Assembly (NCBI GenBank): GCA_947629375.1 | Contig: CANRDN010000016.1 | Coordinates: forward strand, 1 to 42,979 | Length of the DNA: 42,979 nucleotides | Direction of reading: 5' to 3' | Source: an uncultured Bacilli bacterium | Lineage (GTDB): Bacteria > Bacillota_I > Bacilli_A > RF39 > UBA660 | Shown here: in pieces, positions 7,359 to 39,848 of the stretch | How the letters are laid out: each line of letters starts with the position of its first letter | How positions within the stretch are numbered: position 1 is the first letter of the stretch | Notes under the pieces: generated by a model | Told to the model about the DNA's origin: nothing | Databases searched by the model: none | The model's input: only the letters and a program-made list of their open reading frames with translations | Program-made: the position numbers and the translations under genes

Positions 7359-8291
7359 ATGAAGATAATAAATGATAGAAATTTTGAATACACAGTCGAT
7401 GACACCGCTATAGTCATCGGCTATATAGGTTATGAAGACAGCGGCAGCTGCACAATACCATCCGAAATCGATGGAAAACCGGTTACATCCATAGGCTATG
7501 GTGCTTTCAATGGATGCAAACTATCAAATATAATTATTCCTGACAGTGTAACATCAATAGGTGAGTATGCGTTTGAAAACTGTAAAAATCTCAAAAGTAT
7601 TAATATTCCCAAGAATGTTACCGAAATAAGAGCCGGTACATTTGAAAATTGTACAAAACTGTCAGATATAACAATACCTGACAGTATAACATCGATAGGT
7701 GATTTTGCGTTTCTGGATTGTCACTCATTAACAAGCATAACTATACCCGGCAGTGTTAAAGAAATAGGCGAGTCCGCTTTCCACACAACAGGGCTGACGA
7801 GTATAACGATACCGGACAGTGTTGAAGAAATAGGCGGCTGGGCATTTTTCGGATGTGATGATCTGGAGAGTGCAACGATATCCGGCAGTGTTAAATCAAT
7901 CGGTGAATTATCGTTTTTCGGATGCAACAATCTGAAAAATGTAACATTATCTGAGGGTATTGAGTCGATAGCCCCTCATGCATTCGCCAACACGGGACTA
8001 ATCGATATCACGATACCAAGCAGTGTTAAATCAATAGGTGATCTTGCATTTTTCGGCTGTAGTGAGCTGAAGAATGTAATATTATCCGACGGTATCGAAG
8101 AAATAGGCGATATTACATTCGCCCACACAAAACTGTCAGACGTAACAATACCCGACAGCGTTACCAAGATAGGTGCGGGTATATTTGACGGTTGCGATAA
8201 CATAACTATTCACGGTTGTTCAAAAAACAGTTATGCCGAAATTTACGCAGAGGAAAACGGCATACCATTTGCTGAAGTAAATACTAACTGA
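7359..8291 (+). CDS. BspA-type leucine-rich-repeat protein (LRR paralogue 1)
   Basis: A predicted 310-aa protein. A short beta cap (FEYTVDDTAIVIGYIGYE) leads to IPSEIDGKPVTSIGYGAF and then about ten LRR_5/BspA repeats of 22-23 residues with the consensus 'LTSITIPDSVTSIGxxAFxxC'. BspA-like repeats mediate binding to host matrix or other cells in several species. Here no signal peptide, anchor or membrane segment is visible, so the protein is either cytoplasmic or exported by an unusual route. The last repeat is degenerate and ends in NGIPFAEVN. The ribosome binding site is AAAGGAG. It is the first of four tandem paralogues. Confidence 0.85.
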   Translation: MKIINDRNFEYTVDDTAIVIGYIGYEDSGSCTIPSEIDGKPVTSIGYGAFNGCKLSNIIIPDSVTSIGEYAFENCKNLKSINIPKNVTEIRAGTFENCTKLSDITIPDSITSIGDFAFLDCHSLTSITIPGSVKEIGESAFHTTGLTSITIPDSVEEIGGWAFFGCDDLESATISGSVKSIGELSFFGCNNLKNVTLSEGIESIAPHAFANTGLIDITIPSSVKSIGDLAFFGCSELKNVILSDGIEEIGDITFAHTKLSDVTIPDSVTKIGAGIFDGCDNITIHGCSKNSYAEIYAEENGIPFAEVNTN

Positions 8292-12524: not shown

Positions 12525-13550
12525 ATGAGGAAGACTGTAAATTTTGAATACATCGTTGCCGAGATAAATGGTGTAGAGAATGGTATAGAAATCTTAAATT
12601 ATTCCGGAAGCGACAGCGATGTCGTTATCCCATCTAAAATTGACGGGAAACCGGTCACGGTCATAGGACCGTCGGTGTTCGGCGTGGAGGAGGACGGCAG
12701 TCACTACGGCCGTTCACACATGATCAAACACGTAATCATACCGAACAGTGTCATCGAGATAGATAATTCTGCATTCGATGATTGTACCGAACTAACACAT
12801 ATAACAATTCCTGACAGTGTTACGAAAATTGGCGAGCGGGCATTTGCTTGCAGTGGACTAACACACATAACCATACCCGACGGTGTTACGGAGATAGGTG
12901 ATGATGCGTTCGGATATTGCACCAATCTGACCAGTATCGATGTTGGTCAAAATAATAAGAATTATACATCAGAAGATGGAATCTTATTCAATAAGGATAA
13001 GACGGTTTTAATTAAGTACCCGTCTGTGAAAGCAGGTACTTACAGTGTACCAAACACTGTTACGAAAATCGAACACGGTGCATTTTACGAATGTGCTGGT
13101 CTTACAGGTATAACAATACCGAACAGTGTCACAACAATAGGTGCATCTGCGTTTAAAGGATGCACAGGACTGAAATGGGTAACGATACCTGACAGTATTA
13201 CAGAAATAAAGCCAGATACATTCAGTGACTGTACCGCCCTGAACGAAGTACATTTCTTCGGGGAAGTCACAGAAATAGGCGATTATGCTTTTCGGAATTG
13301 TACGTCCCTGACAAGCATAAACGTACCCGATACCGTCAAAAGAATTGGAGAATATGCGTTCTACAACTGTCGCTCGCTGACGACGGTAGACATAGAATTA
13401 CGAAACAATAAAGCAAAGATCGAAAGCTTTGCTTTCAGTTACTGTACGGCACTGTCAAATGTACGCATGCCCAAGCATGTCACAGTCGACGAATCAGCAT
13501 TTTCAGGCTGCTGTGACAGTATGAACATACGTAGTGCAGCTATAATTTGA
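12525..13550 (+). CDS. BspA-type leucine-rich-repeat protein (LRR paralogue 4)
   Basis: A predicted 341-aa protein. The cap is FEYIVAEINGVENGIEIL, then IPSKIDGKPVTVIG and about eleven repeats with one YTSEDGILFNKDK insertion. The C-terminus ends in a degenerate Cys-rich repeat (SGCCDSMNIRSAAII). It has no signal peptide or anchor. The ribosome binding site AAAGGGG lies 9 nt before ATG. It is the most diverged of paralogues 2-4 in its central repeats (KWVTIPDSITEIKPDTFSDC), and closes the LRR array. Confidence 0.85.
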   Translation: MRKTVNFEYIVAEINGVENGIEILNYSGSDSDVVIPSKIDGKPVTVIGPSVFGVEEDGSHYGRSHMIKHVIIPNSVIEIDNSAFDDCTELTHITIPDSVTKIGERAFACSGLTHITIPDGVTEIGDDAFGYCTNLTSIDVGQNNKNYTSEDGILFNKDKTVLIKYPSVKAGTYSVPNTVTKIEHGAFYECAGLTGITIPNSVTTIGASAFKGCTGLKWVTIPDSITEIKPDTFSDCTALNEVHFFGEVTEIGDYAFRNCTSLTSINVPDTVKRIGEYAFYNCRSLTTVDIELRNNKAKIESFAFSYCTALSNVRMPKHVTVDESAFSGCCDSMNIRSAAII

Positions 13551-21044: not shown

Positions 21045-22691
21045 GTGTCAATTAAACTTATGGGTAGGACTAAAAATCAAATTCTTGATGAAGTCACAAA
21101 TACCTACATAAATCAATTAACGCCGGGTAAAACCCCTGAAAATATCAGTATAGAATTGGAGAATTTAATCGAATCTGAATTATCGCTTGAAAATCAGCTT
21201 CGCCCGAAACGCAGCCTGTTCCGAATACCTGACTGTTTATCATTTGACCAGATTGCACAGCTTATGGCAAAATTATATCCCATTGCCCGTATTGCCTGTG
21301 CGGGTACAAATGCTGATCCGGCATATGACTTATTAGCATTATATGTTCCCGATGAAGGTACTTATACCACTGATGAAGATGAACTGTACAAAATAGCAAT
21401 CCGCTTTAACAGACGTTTATCATCAAATGAATTCAGCGAGATTTTGAGACGTCTGCGTATTCTGACGCCGAGAAAACTTCGATGTCAAGATAGAGACCTC
21501 ATTGCCGTCAATAACGGCATATTTCATTATGACACGAAAACACTCGAACCGTTTTCTCCCGATTATGTATTTATGACAAAATGCCATGTAAATTATAATC
21601 CGTCGGCTCAGAATATTACAATTCATAATGATGACGATAATACCGATTGGGATGTAGAGTCATGGATGTCGGAACTGTCTGACGACTCCGAAATTGTTGA
21701 ACTGTTATGGCAGATTTTATCTGCTATAATAAGACCGCATGTTCGCTGGAATAAGTCAGCTTGGTTATATTCCGAAACCGGTAATAACGGTAAGGGAACA
21801 CTTTGCGAACTTATGCGTTCTTTATGCGGTGATACAGCATACGCTGTCATCCCTATTGATGATTTCGGCAAAGACTTTGCACTTGAGCCATTAACACGGG
21901 CAACGGCTATTATCGTTGATGAAAACAACGTAGGTACGTTTATAGACAAAGCGGCTAATATTAAAGCGGTAATAACTAATGACGTCATTTCTATTAACAG
22001 AAAATTCAAAACGCCTATTAGTTATCAGTTTTACGGTTTTATGGTGCAATGCCTTAACGAATTTCCGAGAATAAGAGATAAATCGGATTCTTTCTACCGA
22101 AGACAATTATTCATACCGTTTGATAAGTGTTTTACGGGAATCGAAAGAAAGTATATCAAAGAAGATTATCTGCATCGAACAGAGGTATTGGAATACGTTT
22201 TATACAAAGTTCTTAACACGAACTTTTATAAACTGTCCGAACCGCAGTCTTGCCGCAACATTCTCGCTGAATATAAAGAGTTCAACGATCCTGTGCGTCA
22301 GTTTTTTGCTGAATTCGAAAACATATTTGTATGGGATTTACTCCCATTTCCATTCCTATATGACCTGTATAAAGCATGGTTTCGCAAAAATTCGCCTAAC
22401 GGTTCTATACAGGGTAAAAACAAATTCATATCTGAATTGATTAATGTAATCAAGAATAATCCCACATGGTATTGCGGTGATAAAACAAAAACTATCAGAT
22501 CATCTGGAAAAATGAACGCTCCCGAACCGTTAATTGTTAAATATGATTTACAGGACTGGATGAACCCGAACTATACCGGCGGCGATATAAACCGTATATG
22601 TATACCGGCTCTTGCATCCGCTTACAGAGGTCTCTTGCGTACAAATTCTTCAGTAACATCTGATACAGAAATCGAGGTGACAAATAATTGA
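21045..22691 (+). CDS. D5/P4-family replicative helicase (SF3-type)
   Basis: A predicted 548-aa protein. Residues about 150-215 match the D5_N region (RDLIAVNNGIFHYDTKTLEP, then ILSAIIRPH). An SF3 ATPase follows: Walker A GNNGKGT near 245, Walker B TAIIVDENN near 287, and the QCLNEFPRIRDKSDSFYRR sensor segment near 335-350, as in P4 alpha and phage D5-like helicases. The N-terminal 110 residues are too short for a full archaeo-eukaryotic primase, so priming must come from elsewhere or from a reduced domain. It probably unwinds DNA at the adjacent iteron origin. Start: GTG 21045; ATG 21060 in frame is an alternative. Confidence 0.88.
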   Translation: MSIKLMGRTKNQILDEVTNTYINQLTPGKTPENISIELENLIESELSLENQLRPKRSLFRIPDCLSFDQIAQLMAKLYPIARIACAGTNADPAYDLLALYVPDEGTYTTDEDELYKIAIRFNRRLSSNEFSEILRRLRILTPRKLRCQDRDLIAVNNGIFHYDTKTLEPFSPDYVFMTKCHVNYNPSAQNITIHNDDDNTDWDVESWMSELSDDSEIVELLWQILSAIIRPHVRWNKSAWLYSETGNNGKGTLCELMRSLCGDTAYAVIPIDDFGKDFALEPLTRATAIIVDENNVGTFIDKAANIKAVITNDVISINRKFKTPISYQFYGFMVQCLNEFPRIRDKSDSFYRRQLFIPFDKCFTGIERKYIKEDYLHRTEVLEYVLYKVLNTNFYKLSEPQSCRNILAEYKEFNDPVRQFFAEFENIFVWDLLPFPFLYDLYKAWFRKNSPNGSIQGKNKFISELINVIKNNPTWYCGDKTKTIRSSGKMNAPEPLIVKYDLQDWMNPNYTGGDINRICIPALASAYRGLLRTNSSVTSDTEIEVTNN

Positions 22692-23161
22692 AAATACTAA
22701 TTGACGGCGACGCCTGTCCTGTGATACACATAACTGAAACTATTGCCGCAAAATATGACATTGAGTGTCATATATATTGCGATAATACTCGTCATATTGT
22801 ATCCGATTACTCGTCTTTGCACATTCTGGATAAAGGCTGCGATAATGCTGATTTTGCACTGTTAAATGCCTGCTGCAAAGGAGACATTGTGATTACGAGT
22901 GATTCCGGTCTCGCTGCCATCGCTATTGCCAAAAAGTGTCGTGTTCTGAACCCCAAAGGATTCGCATATACTCAGCGAAACATAATGTCATTTTTAACAC
23001 GACGCTTCTTACGGACAGATGCGAAAAAAAGAACAAGAGGTCGAAACCAGTTACACGGTTTTTATTCAACGTGTAATGCCTCTGTAAAAATTACGGATTA
23101 TAATGTTCTGTTAATCCGCAATATACAAAGTTCTATAAAACAACAAAAAAGGGGTAACTAA
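22688..23161 (+). CDS. YaiI/YqxD family (DUF188) protein
   Basis: A predicted 157-aa protein. The DGDACPV motif at the start, DNADFALLNACCKGDIVITSD in the middle and a basic LTRRFLRTDAKKRTRGRN stretch are hallmarks of the YaiI/YqxD (DUF188) family, a PIN-like fold without proven function. Asp residues of DGD and ITSD could bind metal. The TTG start overlaps the helicase stop (TTGA) with GAGGTGA upstream, so it is translationally coupled to the helicase; a nuclease role in replication is inferred from this. Confidence 0.85.
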   Translation: MKILIDGDACPVIHITETIAAKYDIECHIYCDNTRHIVSDYSSLHILDKGCDNADFALLNACCKGDIVITSDSGLAAIAIAKKCRVLNPKGFAYTQRNIMSFLTRRFLRTDAKKRTRGRNQLHGFYSTCNASVKITDYNVLLIRNIQSSIKQQKRGN

Positions 23162-23189
23162 TCTGTTACGATAAACTTACAAAAATGTA

Positions 23190-23670
23190 CAAAAATTTGC
23201 AAGTTTATTAAAGTTGTCTAAGACAGATGCCCTGCGTATTCCGTAAGGAGTGCGTACCAAGCAGGTTAAATGCAGGTAATAGGTAAAGCCCAGCACCAAA
23301 ACGGAGAGGGAAACCTCAAACGGCAAAGGTACGAAAGTAGAAAAGACGCTGGGATGGCATATGCTGAAATAAAAGCATTATGATAGACAATAATGTGCTA
23401 AGTGCTGATACAATCCTTGTTCATGCAGATAACCCCTAAGTCGAAAGATATGGGGAGAATTTCAACGACTACCCTCTGGCGGAGGGGGACATTAGTCCTT
23501 AATGTAAAACCGTAAGCTAATGACGGAAGAAAAATCCTGCGACCTTTGGTAACAAAGGTATGTCAAATAGTCTGCACACGCCCGTAATTGGGGTGCAAAC
23601 CTATTGTGAAGTAGGTTTGAGGGGTAAGTTGCGATTACCCTGAAACAAAGATAGAAGTTACAAAATTTCC
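23190..23670 (+). ncRNA. Group I intron ribozyme portion
   Basis: The catalytic core pairing P7 is seen as GACTA (23467-23471, in TTCAACGACTA) with TAGTC (23493-23497), enclosing a P8-like hairpin CCCTC/GGAGGG. Upstream lie a P4-P6-like GGAGAGGGAAACCTC hairpin (about 23300) and GATACAATCC, resembling the Q element. Downstream are several P9-type hairpins up to about 23640. A candidate P1 pairs ATAAACTT (23170) with AAGTTTAT (about 23202). The 3' splice site should lie at the far end of the element, near 25440-25480. Confidence 0.75.
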
Positions 23671-23726
23671 ATAAAATTAAATATAAAATTTGTGTTATTT
23701 ATCAAATAGTTTTTCTGTTTTCAGTA

Positions 23727-23755
23727 TTGATTTTTGTCGAAATTTGTATTATAAT
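23727..23755 (+). promoter_or_regulatory. Internal promoter of the IStron HTH/tnpB genes
   Basis: TTGATT (23727-23732), 17-nt spacer, TATAAT (23750-23755), about 30 nt before the HTH start. Confidence 0.7.
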
Positions 23756-23770
23756 TGTAGTATAATACAA
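23744..23770. promoter_or_regulatory. Operator over the IStron promoter
   Basis: Perfect inverted repeat TTGTATTATA / TATAATACAA with a 7-nt spacer. It covers the -10 box and the likely start point, the expected place for autorepression by the HTH protein encoded next. Confidence 0.65.
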
Positions 23771-23784
23771 AGGGAGGCGAAAAT

Positions 23785-24009
23785 ATGAGAAGACCTACAA
23801 AATTAAGCTACTTACGAAAGTATAAGAACTGCTTAACAGTTGCTCAACTTGCAGAAAAAGCCGGTGTCAATATATACACACTTACAAATATTGACTACGG
23901 TCGTACAGACATTAACAAGGTTAGCGTCCGTACAGTAAAGCGAATAGCTGACGCACTTGGTTGTTCTATCGAAGACATTTTGGAAGATGAAATAAACGAA
24001 GCTAATTAG
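23785..24009 (+). CDS. Cro/CI (Xre)-family HTH regulator inside the IStron
   Basis: A 74-aa product. The helix-turn-helix is clear: LTVAQLAEKAGVNIYTLTNI (turn at AGVN), followed by VSVRTVKRIADALGCSIEDI, the usual Xre helix 4-5 pattern. The protein consists of little more than this DNA-binding domain. AAAGGGAGG lies 8 nt before the ATG, the best ribosome binding site in the element. It probably represses its own promoter through the palindrome at 23744 and thereby controls tnpB (inference). I know of no HTH gene as a standard IStron component; a cargo or captured gene is the alternative. Confidence 0.8.
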   Translation: MRRPTKLSYLRKYKNCLTVAQLAEKAGVNIYTLTNIDYGRTDINKVSVRTVKRIADALGCSIEDILEDEINEAN

Positions 24010-24202
24010 AGGGGTAATACAGAGGATAGAGATGTAAACGCATCTTATAACCTAAGAGATTATGCATTAGCACTTTAACAACTTTAGTACCTGTCCGCTA
24101 CGGGGAATTTAAGCCTTATCTAAAATAATCAGAGTACCATTAGAGGGAAATGAAATATTATGAAAGGAAGACAAATTTTACAGATTTGTTTTAGCGGTAA
24201 CA
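24010..24202 (+). other. Spacer between HTH and tnpB with a small hairpin and a short frame
   Basis: Holds GTACCTGTCCGCTACGGGGA-type sequence and an ACAAAT/ATTTGT hairpin (about 24171-24189) after AAAGGAAG. A 27-codon frame starts at ATG 24160 and ends past the tnpB start in another frame. tnpB has no good ribosome binding site of its own, so its translation may depend on this short frame or be kept low. Confidence 0.35.
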
Positions 24203-25354
24203 ATGAAAACAGTAAGGACTGCAATAATATTACTAAAACCTGATAAAATGCAATCTAATAAACTAATGAGAATGAGCGGTTGTGCAAGGGTATGTTACAA
24301 TATGTTACTCGATTATTGGAGTCACATCTATGAAACTCAACAGCGTAAGCCGACTGTACAAGAGATGAGGGAGTACATTAACGAGATAAAATGTACAGAG
24401 GGTTACGAATGGATGTCCGATTTAGAGTATCACATAATGAACAGTATCATAAGCACTGTAATCACAGCGTTCACACGTTTCTTTAAAGGGGTAGCCAGGC
24501 ATCCCAAAAGACATAAAAAGAATCGTAACCACATCAGTTTTCCCATTAGGTGTGACAGATTTAAGTTTTACAATGGAAAGAGGAATATTATTGCAGTACC
24601 CAATGTAGGTAGAATGTCTTATAAGTACCTATCAAAATTCCCTATAACCTCTTTTAAAAAGGCAACAGTAGTTTTCGATGGTAAATGTTGGTATCTAAAG
24701 ATTGCTACTGATGTAGAGTATGATACAGGGGTAAGGGACGGCAGGATAGGTATTGACTTGGGGTATCGAACATTAGCTACAATTTACGATGGTAAGACAA
24801 TTAACATGGTTGACAATATCATGTTTTCTCAAAAGTCTAAAAAGGAACAAAACCTAATAGATAATGTAAACAAACTTGTTTTACGTCTGAAAAACATTGA
24901 CAGATTGATAGCCGAAAAGAAAAAGTCAAACCTCACGTCTAACAATATTGACAGGTTATACAGAAAAAGAGCAAAATTATGTAGACGTGTAGCCAACATT
25001 CAGAACTCTTATCTGCATAAGGTATCTAAAGAGATTGTAAGCAGTCTACCAGAGGAAATTGTCCTCGAAACTCTTGATATTTCAGAGCAAAAAGACCGTC
25101 ATGGAATACTACCTGAGAAGTACAAAACTACTGCATTGTACAAGTTTTATTCTTACATTGTTTACAAGGCACAACAGCATGGTATAGACATAATTCTTGC
25201 AGACAAGTATTACCCGTCCACAAAGATGTGTCACAGGTGTAAGAGACTAAACAACATAGGAGGGGATAAGACATACAGGTGTTCCTGTGGTTTGGTGATA
25301 GATAGAGATATAAACGCATCAATAAATTTATACAATTATGGTGCAAACTATTGA
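24203..25354 (+). CDS. tnpB: TnpB RNA-guided nuclease of the IStron
   Basis: A predicted 383-aa protein, full length for the IS605-type family. The N-terminal domain contains MSGCARVCYNMLLDYW. The RuvC nuclease residues are intact: Asp185 in GIDLGYRTLA, Glu289 in VLETLDIS and DRD (367-369) in VIDRDINASINLY. The zinc ribbon is CHRC...CSCG. TnpB proteins cut DNA next to a short flanking motif using an RNA made from the right end of the element, and so help keep the element in place. With all catalytic residues present it is probably active. The start ATG 24203 lacks a clear ribosome binding site. Confidence 0.93.
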   Translation: MKTVRTAIILLKPDKMQSNKLMRMSGCARVCYNMLLDYWSHIYETQQRKPTVQEMREYINEIKCTEGYEWMSDLEYHIMNSIISTVITAFTRFFKGVARHPKRHKKNRNHISFPIRCDRFKFYNGKRNIIAVPNVGRMSYKYLSKFPITSFKKATVVFDGKCWYLKIATDVEYDTGVRDGRIGIDLGYRTLATIYDGKTINMVDNIMFSQKSKKEQNLIDNVNKLVLRLKNIDRLIAEKKKSNLTSNNIDRLYRKRAKLCRRVANIQNSYLHKVSKEIVSSLPEEIVLETLDISEQKDRHGILPEKYKTTALYKFYSYIVYKAQQHGIDIILADKYYPSTKMCHRCKRLNNIGGDKTYRCSCGLVIDRDINASINLYNYGANY

Positions 25355-25440
25355 TAAATAACAGCCGTCACCGTAACACGGCTGTCTAAAATAGTCCATA
25401 ACATGGATAGGCTACTTTCAAGTAGCGGTAAAGCACAAAT
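25355..25440 (+). ncRNA. Omega RNA scaffold / right end of the IStron
   Basis: Directly after tnpB: hairpin CAGCCGT / ACGGCTG, then ATAGTCC...GGATA, then the terminal hairpin GGCTACTTTCAAGTAGC followed by GGTAAAG. This is the usual position and shape of the TnpB guide RNA scaffold, which overlaps the right end. In IStrons it also adjoins the 3' splice site. The guide would start in the following AT-rich stretch. Confidence 0.6.
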
Positions 25441-25491
25441 TTTATAAGATACTTATAGATTTTTGTAACTTTTATCTTACGGATTGCACGC

Positions 25492-26025
25492 ATGAGACAC
25501 TATTTCTTTGATGCTGACGGTGTACTGTTCCGTTATGAACGACACGCTTATGCAGGATTAAAGCCTCTGTACATACAGCCGAATAAACATTATTTCAGGG
25601 ATTTAAAACCCGATTTGAAAATGCTGAATCTGATACAGAAATTAACTCTGCATAAAAAGTCTTCTGATGAAATATATATACTGACATCCGTTCCGAATAA
25701 TGAACTGACAATCAATGAACATCGTTCCGATAAAAAATTCAGTTTTGCCAAATGGTATCCGTCTGTCAAACCCTGTAATATCATTATATCGGTTATTCCG
25801 AAACCTGATGCTGCACAGCATACCATTGGCACACGTTTATCGTCACATGATATTTTAATCGATGATTATAACAAAAATTTGAATGATTGGCAGTCAGCAG
25901 GCGGAACAGGTATTAAATACTGTAACGGTATTAACACTCCCGCCACATTTTCCGGAACTAAAATTAATAAACAAACCGATTCCGTAAACCACATGCTCAA
26001 TGTACTGTTAAGCATTCCCAATTAG
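25492..26025 (+). CDS. HAD-superfamily 5'(3')-deoxyribonucleotidase-like protein
   Basis: A predicted 177-aa protein. Motif I is FFDADGVLF (Asp7 and Asp9), motif II IYILTSVP, and motif IV HDILIDDYNKNL. This set and the size match small phage 5'-nucleotidases of the NT5C type, which dephosphorylate (deoxy)nucleoside monophosphates and adjust the nucleotide pool during replication. ATG 25492 has no good ribosome binding site. The insertion of the IStron just upstream probably separated the gene from its own site; AAAAAAGGGG ends at 23154 at the end of the previous gene. Confidence 0.8.
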   Translation: MRHYFFDADGVLFRYERHAYAGLKPLYIQPNKHYFRDLKPDLKMLNLIQKLTLHKKSSDEIYILTSVPNNELTINEHRSDKKFSFAKWYPSVKPCNIIISVIPKPDAAQHTIGTRLSSHDILIDDYNKNLNDWQSAGGTGIKYCNGINTPATFSGTKINKQTDSVNHMLNVLLSIPN

Positions 26026-37920: not shown

Positions 37921-38580
37921 ACGGATTGGAACACTATAAACAACGAACAAAAAAATAAAAATTACTTCGTCAAACTCAAAGATTTTGTAGAAAATGAATA
38001 TGCTCTGCATACTTGCTATCCTGCATATGACGACATATTCAAAGCTATACAGATGACACCGTTTGATAAAGTAAAATGCGTTATATTGGGGCAAGATCCT
38101 TACCACGAACCTAATCAAGCGGTAGGTCTTGCGTTTTCGGTCAAACCGAATGCACCGATACCCCGTTCGCTTCAAAACATCTATTCTGAACTGAACAGAG
38201 AACTCAATTTGCCGATTCCAAATAACGGTGATCTTACATCTTGGGCAAAACAGGGTGTTCTTCTGCTTAATTCAATACTCTCTGTAGAGGCACACAAAGC
38301 CGCTTCTCATGCAAACAAGGGCTGGGAAACATATACAGACAGTCTGCTGACAGCTTTAAACAAGAAATCATCTCCTGTCGTATTTATGCTGTGGGGACGA
38401 TACGCTCAGTCAAAACAAAATCTTATAACTAATTCCAATCATCTTATTTTAACAGCGGCTCATCCATCGCCTTTTTCTGCTGACAGAGGCTTCTTTGGCT
38501 GCAATCATTTTATTAAATGCAATAATTTTCTACTCAAAAACGGATTGGCACCGATTGATTGGCGAATACCCAATATTTAA
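37921..38580 (+). CDS. ung: Uracil-DNA glycosylase, no canonical start codon
   Basis: About 219 aa, matching the usual Ung length. Motif A is LGQDPYHEPNQAVGLAFSV (catalytic Asp), LLNSILSV lies mid-protein, and motif B is HPSPFSADRGFFGC. The fold clearly begins before ATG 38053: in-frame residues DWNTINNEQKNKNYFVKL...YPAYDDIFKAIQ match the Ung N-terminus. No ATG, GTG or TTG precedes them. AAAGGAG (37904-37910) leads to GTC (37918, 7 nt away) and ACG (37921, 10 nt away). Ung removes uracil from DNA, so an element-borne copy protects its own DNA. Start assignment is uncertain; function is secure. Confidence 0.9.
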   Translation, partial: TDWNTINNEQKNKNYFVKLKDFVENEYALHTCYPAYDDIFKAIQMTPFDKVKCVILGQDPYHEPNQAVGLAFSVKPNAPIPRSLQNIYSELNRELNLPIPNNGDLTSWAKQGVLLLNSILSVEAHKAASHANKGWETYTDSLLTALNKKSSPVVFMLWGRYAQSKQNLITNSNHLILTAAHPSPFSADRGFFGCNHFIKCNNFLLKNGLAPIDWRIPNI

Positions 38581-38594
38581 ACGGAAGTGATATT

Positions 38595-39848
38595 ATGGAT
38601 TTGCTTCAAGAATTTTTCAGCAAAGCTCGTTGGGAAAAAGCCATCGCTGACGGTGTAGAAAAAGGTATCAATCTCCCGGAATTATGCGAACCCGAACGAA
38701 GACTTGAAATTTACAGACGTATTCGTGACAGAAATTATACTATATCGCCCCCTCATGAAGCTCTTATTCCGAAAGATGACGGAACGTATCGCACTGTTTA
38801 TGTAAACACGGATACAGACCGTATTCTGTTATCGATATATAATGATATGATGTTTGACTTATGTCATGAAATAATACATCCGGCATGTACCAGTTACCAA
38901 AAGGGTATCGGGTGCGGAAAGATTGTTATGCGTATATCAAAAATAATACAAAACATCAATACCGCTGATAACAGAATCGGGGTGAAAGTAGACCTGTCAA
39001 AATATTTCGATTCTGTTCCGATAGAATTTATTGACGAAATATTTGCATACATCGACAATAAATTCGGAAAATCACCTGTAACCGAGATGGTTAAAAATTA
39101 TTATCATACAAATACAGTGTTTGATTTGGACAAAAATCTGATTTCAAAATATTCGTCATTGCGACAAGGCTGTGCGTTTGCCGCATTTCTTGCCGATGCC
39201 GTTCTGTATGATATTGATTGCCGTTTGTCAAAAATGGACGTTCTATACGTCAGATATTCTGATGATATACTCATTATCGGACAGGATTGGCAAAAAGGAT
39301 ACGACTGTCTGCAAGAAATGTTATCAAAGAAAAATCTTATATTAAATCCTAAAAAAGTTGAAATCTTATATAACAACCAATGGTTTAAATTTTTAGGATT
39401 TATGATAAACGGCGATAAAATCAGTCTTTCAAAAAGTCGTTTAAAATCTTTTCAAAAAGAGATTGAAAAACGAACGATAAAGAATAACACATCCGATTTA
39501 CAGAAAATATTAACCCGTGTATATGATTATATGTATCGTGGCAACGGACATTACAGTTGGGCGACTTCGGTACTGCCCGTAATCAATGTAGAGGCTGATA
39601 TAAATACTTTAAACGGATTTATAATGGATTCGATACGTGCAGCCTATACAGGAAAATATCATATCGGCGGTCTTGGTCTTGCAACAAACAAACCCGATTC
39701 CGTTATCATCAGAGGAAAGGGTAAAAATGTAAAAAGCAATCGTCAAAAATTACCGCAAATACCGGGTTACCATACGGTTTTATGTATGAAAAAAATACTG
39801 ACAACATCAAAAGAATTATATGATACTATAGTACGAACAAAAATGTAA
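38595..39848 (+). CDS. Reverse transcriptase (group II-like/unknown group) with YSDD active site
   Basis: About 417 aa from ATG 38595 (ACGGAAGTGA 7 nt upstream). RT blocks are visible: ALIPKDDGTYRTVYV (RT1), VKVDLSKYFDSVPIEF (RT3), SLRQGCAFAAFLADAVLY (RT4) and YVRYSDDILIIG (RT5, YSDD in place of YADD), then NPKKVEILYNNQWFKFLGF (RT6/7). A 'thumb'-like helical end follows. The QG-x-x-F-A-A-F motif differs from the usual QGxxxSP. There is no maturase, HNH or nitrilase domain. It does not fit DGR RTs or retrons clearly. A large structured RNA follows immediately, and RNA and RT may be partners (inference). Confidence 0.8.
   Translation: MDLLQEFFSKARWEKAIADGVEKGINLPELCEPERRLEIYRRIRDRNYTISPPHEALIPKDDGTYRTVYVNTDTDRILLSIYNDMMFDLCHEIIHPACTSYQKGIGCGKIVMRISKIIQNINTADNRIGVKVDLSKYFDSVPIEFIDEIFAYIDNKFGKSPVTEMVKNYYHTNTVFDLDKNLISKYSSLRQGCAFAAFLADAVLYDIDCRLSKMDVLYVRYSDDILIIGQDWQKGYDCLQEMLSKKNLILNPKKVEILYNNQWFKFLGFMINGDKISLSKSRLKSFQKEIEKRTIKNNTSDLQKILTRVYDYMYRGNGHYSWATSVLPVINVEADINTLNGFIMDSIRAAYTGKYHIGGLGLATNKPDSVIIRGKGKNVKSNRQKLPQIPGYHTVLCMKKILTTSKELYDTIVRTKM
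39798..39827 (+). promoter_or_regulatory. Candidate promoter for the large RNA, inside the RT 3' end
   Basis: CTGACA (39798-39803), 18-nt spacer, GATACT (39822-39827). Both boxes differ from consensus by one or two bases; the predicted start near 39834 is about 45 nt before the RNA's closing stem. Confidence 0.4.

What the first reader, a model, noticed from the sequence alone, without database searches (positions are those of the whole stretch)
23165..25491. IStron with its own HTH regulator and operator
A group I intron core, an intact TnpB and an omega-RNA-like right end form an IStron. Uniquely here, a Cro/CI-type gene lies between ribozyme and tnpB. It has its own TTGATT-17-TATAAT promoter and a perfect inverted repeat (TTGTATTATA/TATAATACAA) over that promoter, suggesting feedback control of the nuclease.
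Basis: partly seen in the sequence, partly recalled or inferred. Interest (0 to 1): 0.78.

Follow-up and report, generated by a model that had tools for sequence, protein, structure and literature searches.

The report
Group B IStron with nested HTH remnant
This phage carries a known kind of mobile element, a self-splicing RNA wrapped around an RNA-guided nuclease gene, and the small regulator gene inside it looks like a one-off passenger left by a second element that landed in front of the nuclease gene, not a dedicated control switch.

Summary
The IStron is real and can be delimited. A covariance model built from 22 other introns, window excluded, hits 23384-23596 (E=4e-10). The element follows the published group B (IS607-type) rules: it sits after ...AGGGG, starts with T (23155), ends ACGG (25482), and an AU-rich inverted-repeat stem (23648-23695/25435-25478) encloses an intact tnpB. 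Removing 23155-25482 on paper restores an ATGA stop/start overlap between two phage genes.

The HTH gene, a -35/-10 match and a perfect dyad (23743-23771) are there, but "its own regulatory system" is poorly supported. None of 57 other IStrons collected has such a gene. tnpB now lacks a Shine-Dalgarno; joining 23779 to 24195 would give AAAGGGAGG|TAACAATG, like most IStron tnpBs. Best reading: a degenerate IS607-like fragment carrying the HTH inserted after the GAGG of tnpB's ribosome-binding site, so promoter and dyad were originally tnpB's. Similar dyads precede tnpB in elements without an HTH. Feedback control remains possible but unproven. New member of a known kind; low-to-moderate interest.

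The parts
23155..25482 (+). Whole IStron, 2328 bp: follows AGGGG, starts T, ends ACGG; no target duplication
   Evidence: Group B boundary rules of Tourasse 2014; joining 23154 to 25483 restores ...KRGLHA* with TGA overlapping ATG 25492
23150..23233 (+). 5' exon end and P1: AGGGGU (23150-23155) pairs with internal guide GCCCU (23229-23233); inner pairing AUCUG 23161-23165 / CAGAU 23224-23228
   Evidence: Read from sequence; MFE fold pairs AGGG with CCCU but differs in the inner pairing; group B P1 layout described
23160..23192 (+). Left terminal inverted repeat, partner of right end 25453-25485
   Evidence: 73% complementary over 33 nt; 12 of 1000 shuffles as good
23384..23596 (+). Group I IA2-type catalytic core: P7 5' strand CAACGACTA 23463-23471, P7 3' strand AATAGTCTG at about 23566
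   Evidence: CM R1 from 22 other introns, 49.1 bits, E=4.4e-10; blastn matches to Staphylococcus phage loci, best E=7e-6
23648..23695 (+). 5' arm of AU-rich IR stem closing the ORF loop after the P9.2-like hairpin
   Evidence: Alignment to the reverse complement of the right end scores 42, 0 of 1000 shuffles; duplex -36.5 kcal/mol
25435..25478 (+). 3' arm of the IR stem
23727..23755 (+). Promoter-like TTGATT-17-TATAAT; probably the original tnpB promoter
   Evidence: 10 of 12 consensus
23743..23771 (+). Dyad TTTGTATTATA-7-TATAATACAAA over the -10
   Evidence: Exact and unique in window; local p<0.001, but 1 of 15 shuffles of the element reaches 11
23772..23779 (+). Shine-Dalgarno GGGAGG now serving the HTH gene; proposed original tnpB site, split after GAGG
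   Evidence: 31 of 43 scored IStron tnpB leaders carry GAGGT; joining 23779 to 24195 gives AAAGGGAGG|TAACAATG
23780..24194 (+). Proposed nested 415-bp insertion: HTH gene, tnpB 3' remnant, omega-RNA, right end ending in CGG
   Evidence: Inference; removal gives core-to-tnpB spacing of 222 nt, in the modal range of other IStrons
23785..24009 (+). Cro/CI-type HTH protein, 74 aa
   Evidence: PF13443 E=2.6e-10; best phage relatives 32-41% identity
24016..24194 (+). Remnant of a second TnpB element: C-terminus ...NTEDRDVNASYNLRDYALAL*, omega-RNA GTACCTGTCCGCTACGGGGAATTTAAGCC, right end TTTTAGCGG
   Evidence: Translation and 19/20-nt repeat to the tnpB 3' end; weak but in-register matches to the 3' ends of TnpB elements L105 (E=0.0044), L034, L085, L017, L049
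24203..25354 (+). Intact tnpB, 383 aa
   Evidence: PF07282 1.4e-17, PF01385 2e-8, PF12323 2.6e-8; conserved D/E/D and cysteines
25355..25482 (+). Right end with omega-RNA-like hairpins (25361-25385 and others) running into the IR arm; the guide would be the 3' flank ATTGCACGCATGAGACACTA
   Evidence: Fold; guide position inferred from established TnpB biology

Best explanation
A group B (IS607-type) IStron lies in the last codons of a phage DUF188 gene, directly before a deoxyribonucleotidase-like gene. Its group IA2 ribozyme should splice the element out of mRNA and rejoin the ribosome-binding site and ATGA overlap of the two genes; its TnpB, guided by the 3' flank, should cut empty target sites. 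No transposase is encoded. The HTH gene is a passenger: a degenerate IS607-like fragment (HTH, tnpB 3' end, omega-RNA, CGG end; 23780-24194) inserted after the GAGG of tnpB's ribosome-binding site, so the HTH now uses tnpB's promoter and ribosome-binding site and tnpB has lost its own. Shown: the parts, the ends by sequence rule, the IR stem, the remnant, the rarity. Inferred: splicing, cleavage, insertion history.
For: Independent CM hit; group B ends, IR stem 0/1000 shuffles, duplex -36.5 kcal/mol; restored ATGA junction; remnant of another tnpB/omega-RNA/right end between HTH and tnpB, whose omega-RNA signature recurs in one other genome of the host's family, downstream of a tnpB; 0 of 57 other IStrons with a Cro/CI gene there; predicted pre-insertion junction AAAGGGAGG|TAACAATG matches the leader of most IStron tnpBs, and the reduced spacing of 222 nt is modal; dyads before tnpB in HTH-less L223, L157, L105; GG-ending target and CGG end are the published group B rule.
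Against: No relative with the empty site or the pre-insertion form was found. The proposed insertion has no recognisable left end (764 of 1000 shuffles match as well) and starts with C, not T. Matches of the remnant are weak individually (best E=0.0044). Dyads before tnpB are only modestly enriched (6 of 43 at p<=0.05). The sample of 57 holds no close relative of this TnpB (the best are about 30% identical).
Confidence: 0.62

Rival explanations
1. The HTH is a native IStron gene (ORF A replaced), in an operon with tnpB under an autoregulated promoter; only the 179-bp right-end fragment 24016-24194 was inserted later, between HTH and tnpB, at GAGGGG|T.
For: Fragment starts after GGGG with T and ends CGG; removal would also leave an SD-like TAGAGGGG|TAACAATG. 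Dyad over the -10 suits an autorepressor.
Against: No other IStron of 57 has such a gene; a tnpB 3' fragment without a left end is not a mobile unit; GAGGGG fits the IStron SD consensus less well than GGGAGG.
Confidence: 0.2
2. One reading: a dedicated HTH/operator feedback circuit that limits TnpB expression in this IStron.
For: Gene, promoter match and perfect dyad exist and are adjacent; no forward terminator was found between HTH and tnpB, so tnpB could be co-transcribed.
Against: One-off against 57 others; dyads occur in HTH-less tnpB leaders; remnant between the two genes; tnpB lacks an SD, so control at the nuclease is already disturbed.
Confidence: 0.1
3. An ordinary group IA2 intron next to an unrelated tnpB insertion, not one IStron.
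For: The CM also hits plain IA2 introns, such as L116 with an HNH-like gene in a phage tail gene.
Against: The IR stem joins the ribozyme end to the right end of tnpB, left and right ends match, GG/CGG ends, and excision of the whole restores the host junction.
Confidence: 0.04

Closest known systems
Group B IStrons (BcISt1, CbISt1-4, SrISt1; Tourasse et al. 2014, PMC4227781)
   Same: IA2 ribozyme at the left, IS607-type right end, GG target, T start, CGG end, long AU-rich IR stem, ORF A often lost, tnpB kept
   Different: Contains an extra Cro/CI gene and a second tnpB/omega-RNA remnant in the ORF loop; very divergent TnpB (about 30% identity to the best hits)
IS607-family elements with TnpB
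   Same: GG-targeted ends, TnpB and omega-RNA; the nested remnant ends in the same way
   Different: The remnant has no recognisable left end, no TnpA and only a tnpB 3' end
Group IA2 introns of Twort-like Staphylococcus phages
   Same: Core sequence similarity to several Staphylococcus phage loci
   Different: Not shown to have TnpB or an IR-closed ORF loop; those hits were not examined further
Cro/CI-type phage regulators (PF13443)
   Same: HTH domain, 32-41% identity to small phage regulators
   Different: Sits next to a transposon remnant inside an IStron; binding site and target unknown

Membership tests
Group B IStron | Group I IA2 intron core | tested here: met
   CM R1 49.1 bits, E=4.4e-10; Rfam gave nothing
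Group B IStron | Insertion after a GG-ending site, no target duplication, 5' exon ends in G and element starts with T | tested here: met
   AGGGG|TAACT at 23150-23159, rule; restored junction. No empty-site relative found, so inferred from one copy
Group B IStron | 3' terminus CGG | tested here: met
   TTACGG|ATTG at 25482
Group B IStron | Long AU-rich IR stem after P9.2 enclosing the ORFs | tested here: met
Group B IStron | TnpB (ORF B) in the loop | tested here: met
Group B IStron | IS607-type ORF A (optional: often lost in accepted members) | tested here: not met
   No TnpA in the element; loss of ORF A is common in accepted members, so this is not a defining failure
Group B IStron | Self-splicing in vivo or in vitro | not testable with these tools
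   Needs RT-PCR
HTH-regulated IStron system (as proposed) | HTH at the same place in other IStrons | tested here: not met
   0 of 57
HTH-regulated IStron system (as proposed) | Protein binds the dyad and represses | not testable with these tools
   Needs gel shift and promoter fusion

The most novel reading that the evidence does not exclude
A mobile intron-nuclease element has captured a Cro/CI repressor that binds the dyad over the promoter shared by HTH and tnpB, so TnpB cutting is self-limited inside a phage; the second omega-RNA in the same transcript could also act as a decoy guide for TnpB.
Probability: 0.1. Interest if true: 0.55.

Novelty: new member of a known kind. Interest (0 to 1): 0.33.

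Why it matters
It adds a divergent group B IStron in a phage contig and suggests how nested IS607-like insertions can target the ribosome-binding site of tnpB (GAGG) and so swap the gene under tnpB's promoter. It also shows that IStrons are common in public viral and Firmicute sequences: 57 were collected here with a simple core pattern plus TnpB. If the captured HTH really controls the nuclease it would, to my knowledge, be a first case of dedicated transcriptional control within an IStron, but present evidence favours cargo.

Tried and rejected
Rfam search for the intron found nothing, so a custom model was used. Single-sequence searches with TnpB, HTH and two neighbouring phage genes found no close relative, so no empty site could be compared. 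The plasmid hit to the remnant (H120, 24 nt) was judged a chance match, not next to tnpB. A nested-insertion model with its left end at about 23666 was rejected because 23648-23695 pairs with the IStron's own right end. Treating the HTH-like matches near tnpB in L100, L090, L094, L017 and L024 as HTH cases was rejected: they are IS607 TnpA proteins or fragments (MerR-type HTH). A pattern for the remnant's omega-RNA had no viral hit.

Full report
Setting. The window is a whole contig (C16, 42979 bases) of a 1.87-Mb genome bin. Its genes are those of a large phage: a polymerase with a weak match to crAss-like DNA polymerase B, a D5-like primase-helicase, RecD2, RecJ and SNF2 proteins and a reverse transcriptase. 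The flanking genes are DUF188 (22688-23161) and a deoxyribonucleotidase-like gene (25492-26025).

The ribozyme. Rfam reports no group I intron even at E=10. Blastn finds similarity to Staphylococcus phage loci (best E=7e-6). Many relatives of the TnpB in viral contigs have CAACGACTA and ATATAGTCT motifs upstream. A covariance model built from 22 such loci, with the window left out, finds 23384-23596 at 49.1 bits, E=4.4e-10; the next best hit in the window has E=0.32. The model also finds plain IA2 introns such as L116, so it establishes the core, not IStron status.

Ends and architecture. Tourasse et al. 2014 define group B IStrons by a GG-ending target, a U as first intron base, a CGG end, and a long AU-rich inverted-repeat stem after P9.2. 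The window shows AGGGG|TAACT at 23155 and TTACGG|ATTG at 25482. Arms 23648-23695 and 25435-25478 align with a score no shuffle reached (0 of 1000) and form a duplex of -36.5 kcal/mol. The left end 23160-23192 also matches the right end. Joining 23154 to 25483 on paper turns the DUF188 end into ...KRGLHA* with its TGA overlapping the ATG of the next gene (ATGA), the usual coupled arrangement, with AAAAGGGG nine bases before that ATG. This is strong internal support for the boundaries, but no empty-site relative was found.

TnpB. The 383-aa protein has the expected Pfam domains and keeps the conserved D185, E289, D369 and four cysteines. It is divergent: about 30% identical to the best relatives found, and there is no close relative in the collections searched.

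The HTH gene. It is a real Cro/CI-type protein with generic phage relatives. A promoter match and a perfect dyad precede it. The dyad is significant locally (0 of 1000) but an 11-nt arm turned up in 1 of 15 shuffles of the whole element, and promoter-like matches are frequent in this AT-rich DNA.

What lies between HTH and tnpB. Positions about 24016-24194 encode NTEDRDVNASYNLRDYALAL*, a TnpB C-terminus, with a 19/20-nt repeat of the intact tnpB 3' end. An omega-RNA-like stretch and TTTTAGCGG, a CGG right end, follow. The best matches in the fetched loci, weak one by one (E from 0.0044), nearly all lie in register at tnpB 3' ends. The signature TACCTGTCCGYTACGGGRAAT occurs in the window and in one other of 291 genomes of the host's family, downstream of a tnpB.

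Comparison with other IStrons. Of 57 other distinct loci with the core motifs and tnpB within 2.6 kb, none has a Cro/CI gene in between; five carry a TnpA (one search shows the TnpA of L017, L063 and L085). Spacing from core to tnpB is mostly 80-290 nt; in the window it is 637, and 222 without 23780-24194. Of 43 scored tnpB leaders, 31 carry GAGGT. The window's tnpB has no such site, but AAAGGGAGG (ending 23779) joined to TAACAATG (from 24195) would supply one. Insertion after GAGG and a CGG end is the group B/IS607 rule. Dyads precede tnpB without any HTH in L223 (12-nt arms over the -10), L157 and L105, though enrichment across the set is modest (6 of 43 at p<=0.05).

Reading. The most economical history is an IStron of about 1.9 kb whose tnpB leader (promoter, dyad, ribosome-binding site) was split by a 415-bp degenerate IS607-like fragment carrying the HTH. 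A rival in which HTH is native and only 179 bp were inserted cannot be excluded. The weak point of the favoured model is the missing left end of the insertion. In either case HTH and tnpB may share a transcript, since no forward terminator was seen, so a regulatory effect is possible but undemonstrated.

Known background not retrieved here (own knowledge): IStron splicing and omega-RNA use compete for the same transcript (Sternberg laboratory, 2024).

Noticed in passing
L017, L019, L021, L030-L242 (list): 57 distinct IStron-like loci (IA2 core plus tnpB) were collected from viral contigs, phages, plasmids and bacterial genomes, including L184 labelled Synergistales; Tourasse 2014 had reported only Firmicutes and Fusobacteria.
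   Followed up: partly
window 38559-39845: Reverse transcriptase (PF00078 E=2.6e-24) in the same phage contig; possible diversity-generating element.
   Followed up: no
window 7359-8288 and 12525-13547: Two BspA-type leucine-rich repeat proteins (PF13306) in the phage contig.
   Followed up: no
L002 (G000:C58) and L003 (G000:C15): Two other TnpB gene pieces in the same bin share their C-terminal sequence exactly (DIIVCETLKIKEMIEEGK...), with different sequence upstream of it.
   Followed up: no
L116 (G173:C8): IA2-type intron with an HNH-like gene in a phage tail tape-measure gene, in the same bacterial family as the bin.
   Followed up: partly
L223 tnpB leader: Perfect 24-bp palindrome TTATAATGCGAATTCGCATTATAA over the tnpB promoter of an HTH-less IStron; similar dyads in L157 and L105.
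   Followed up: partly
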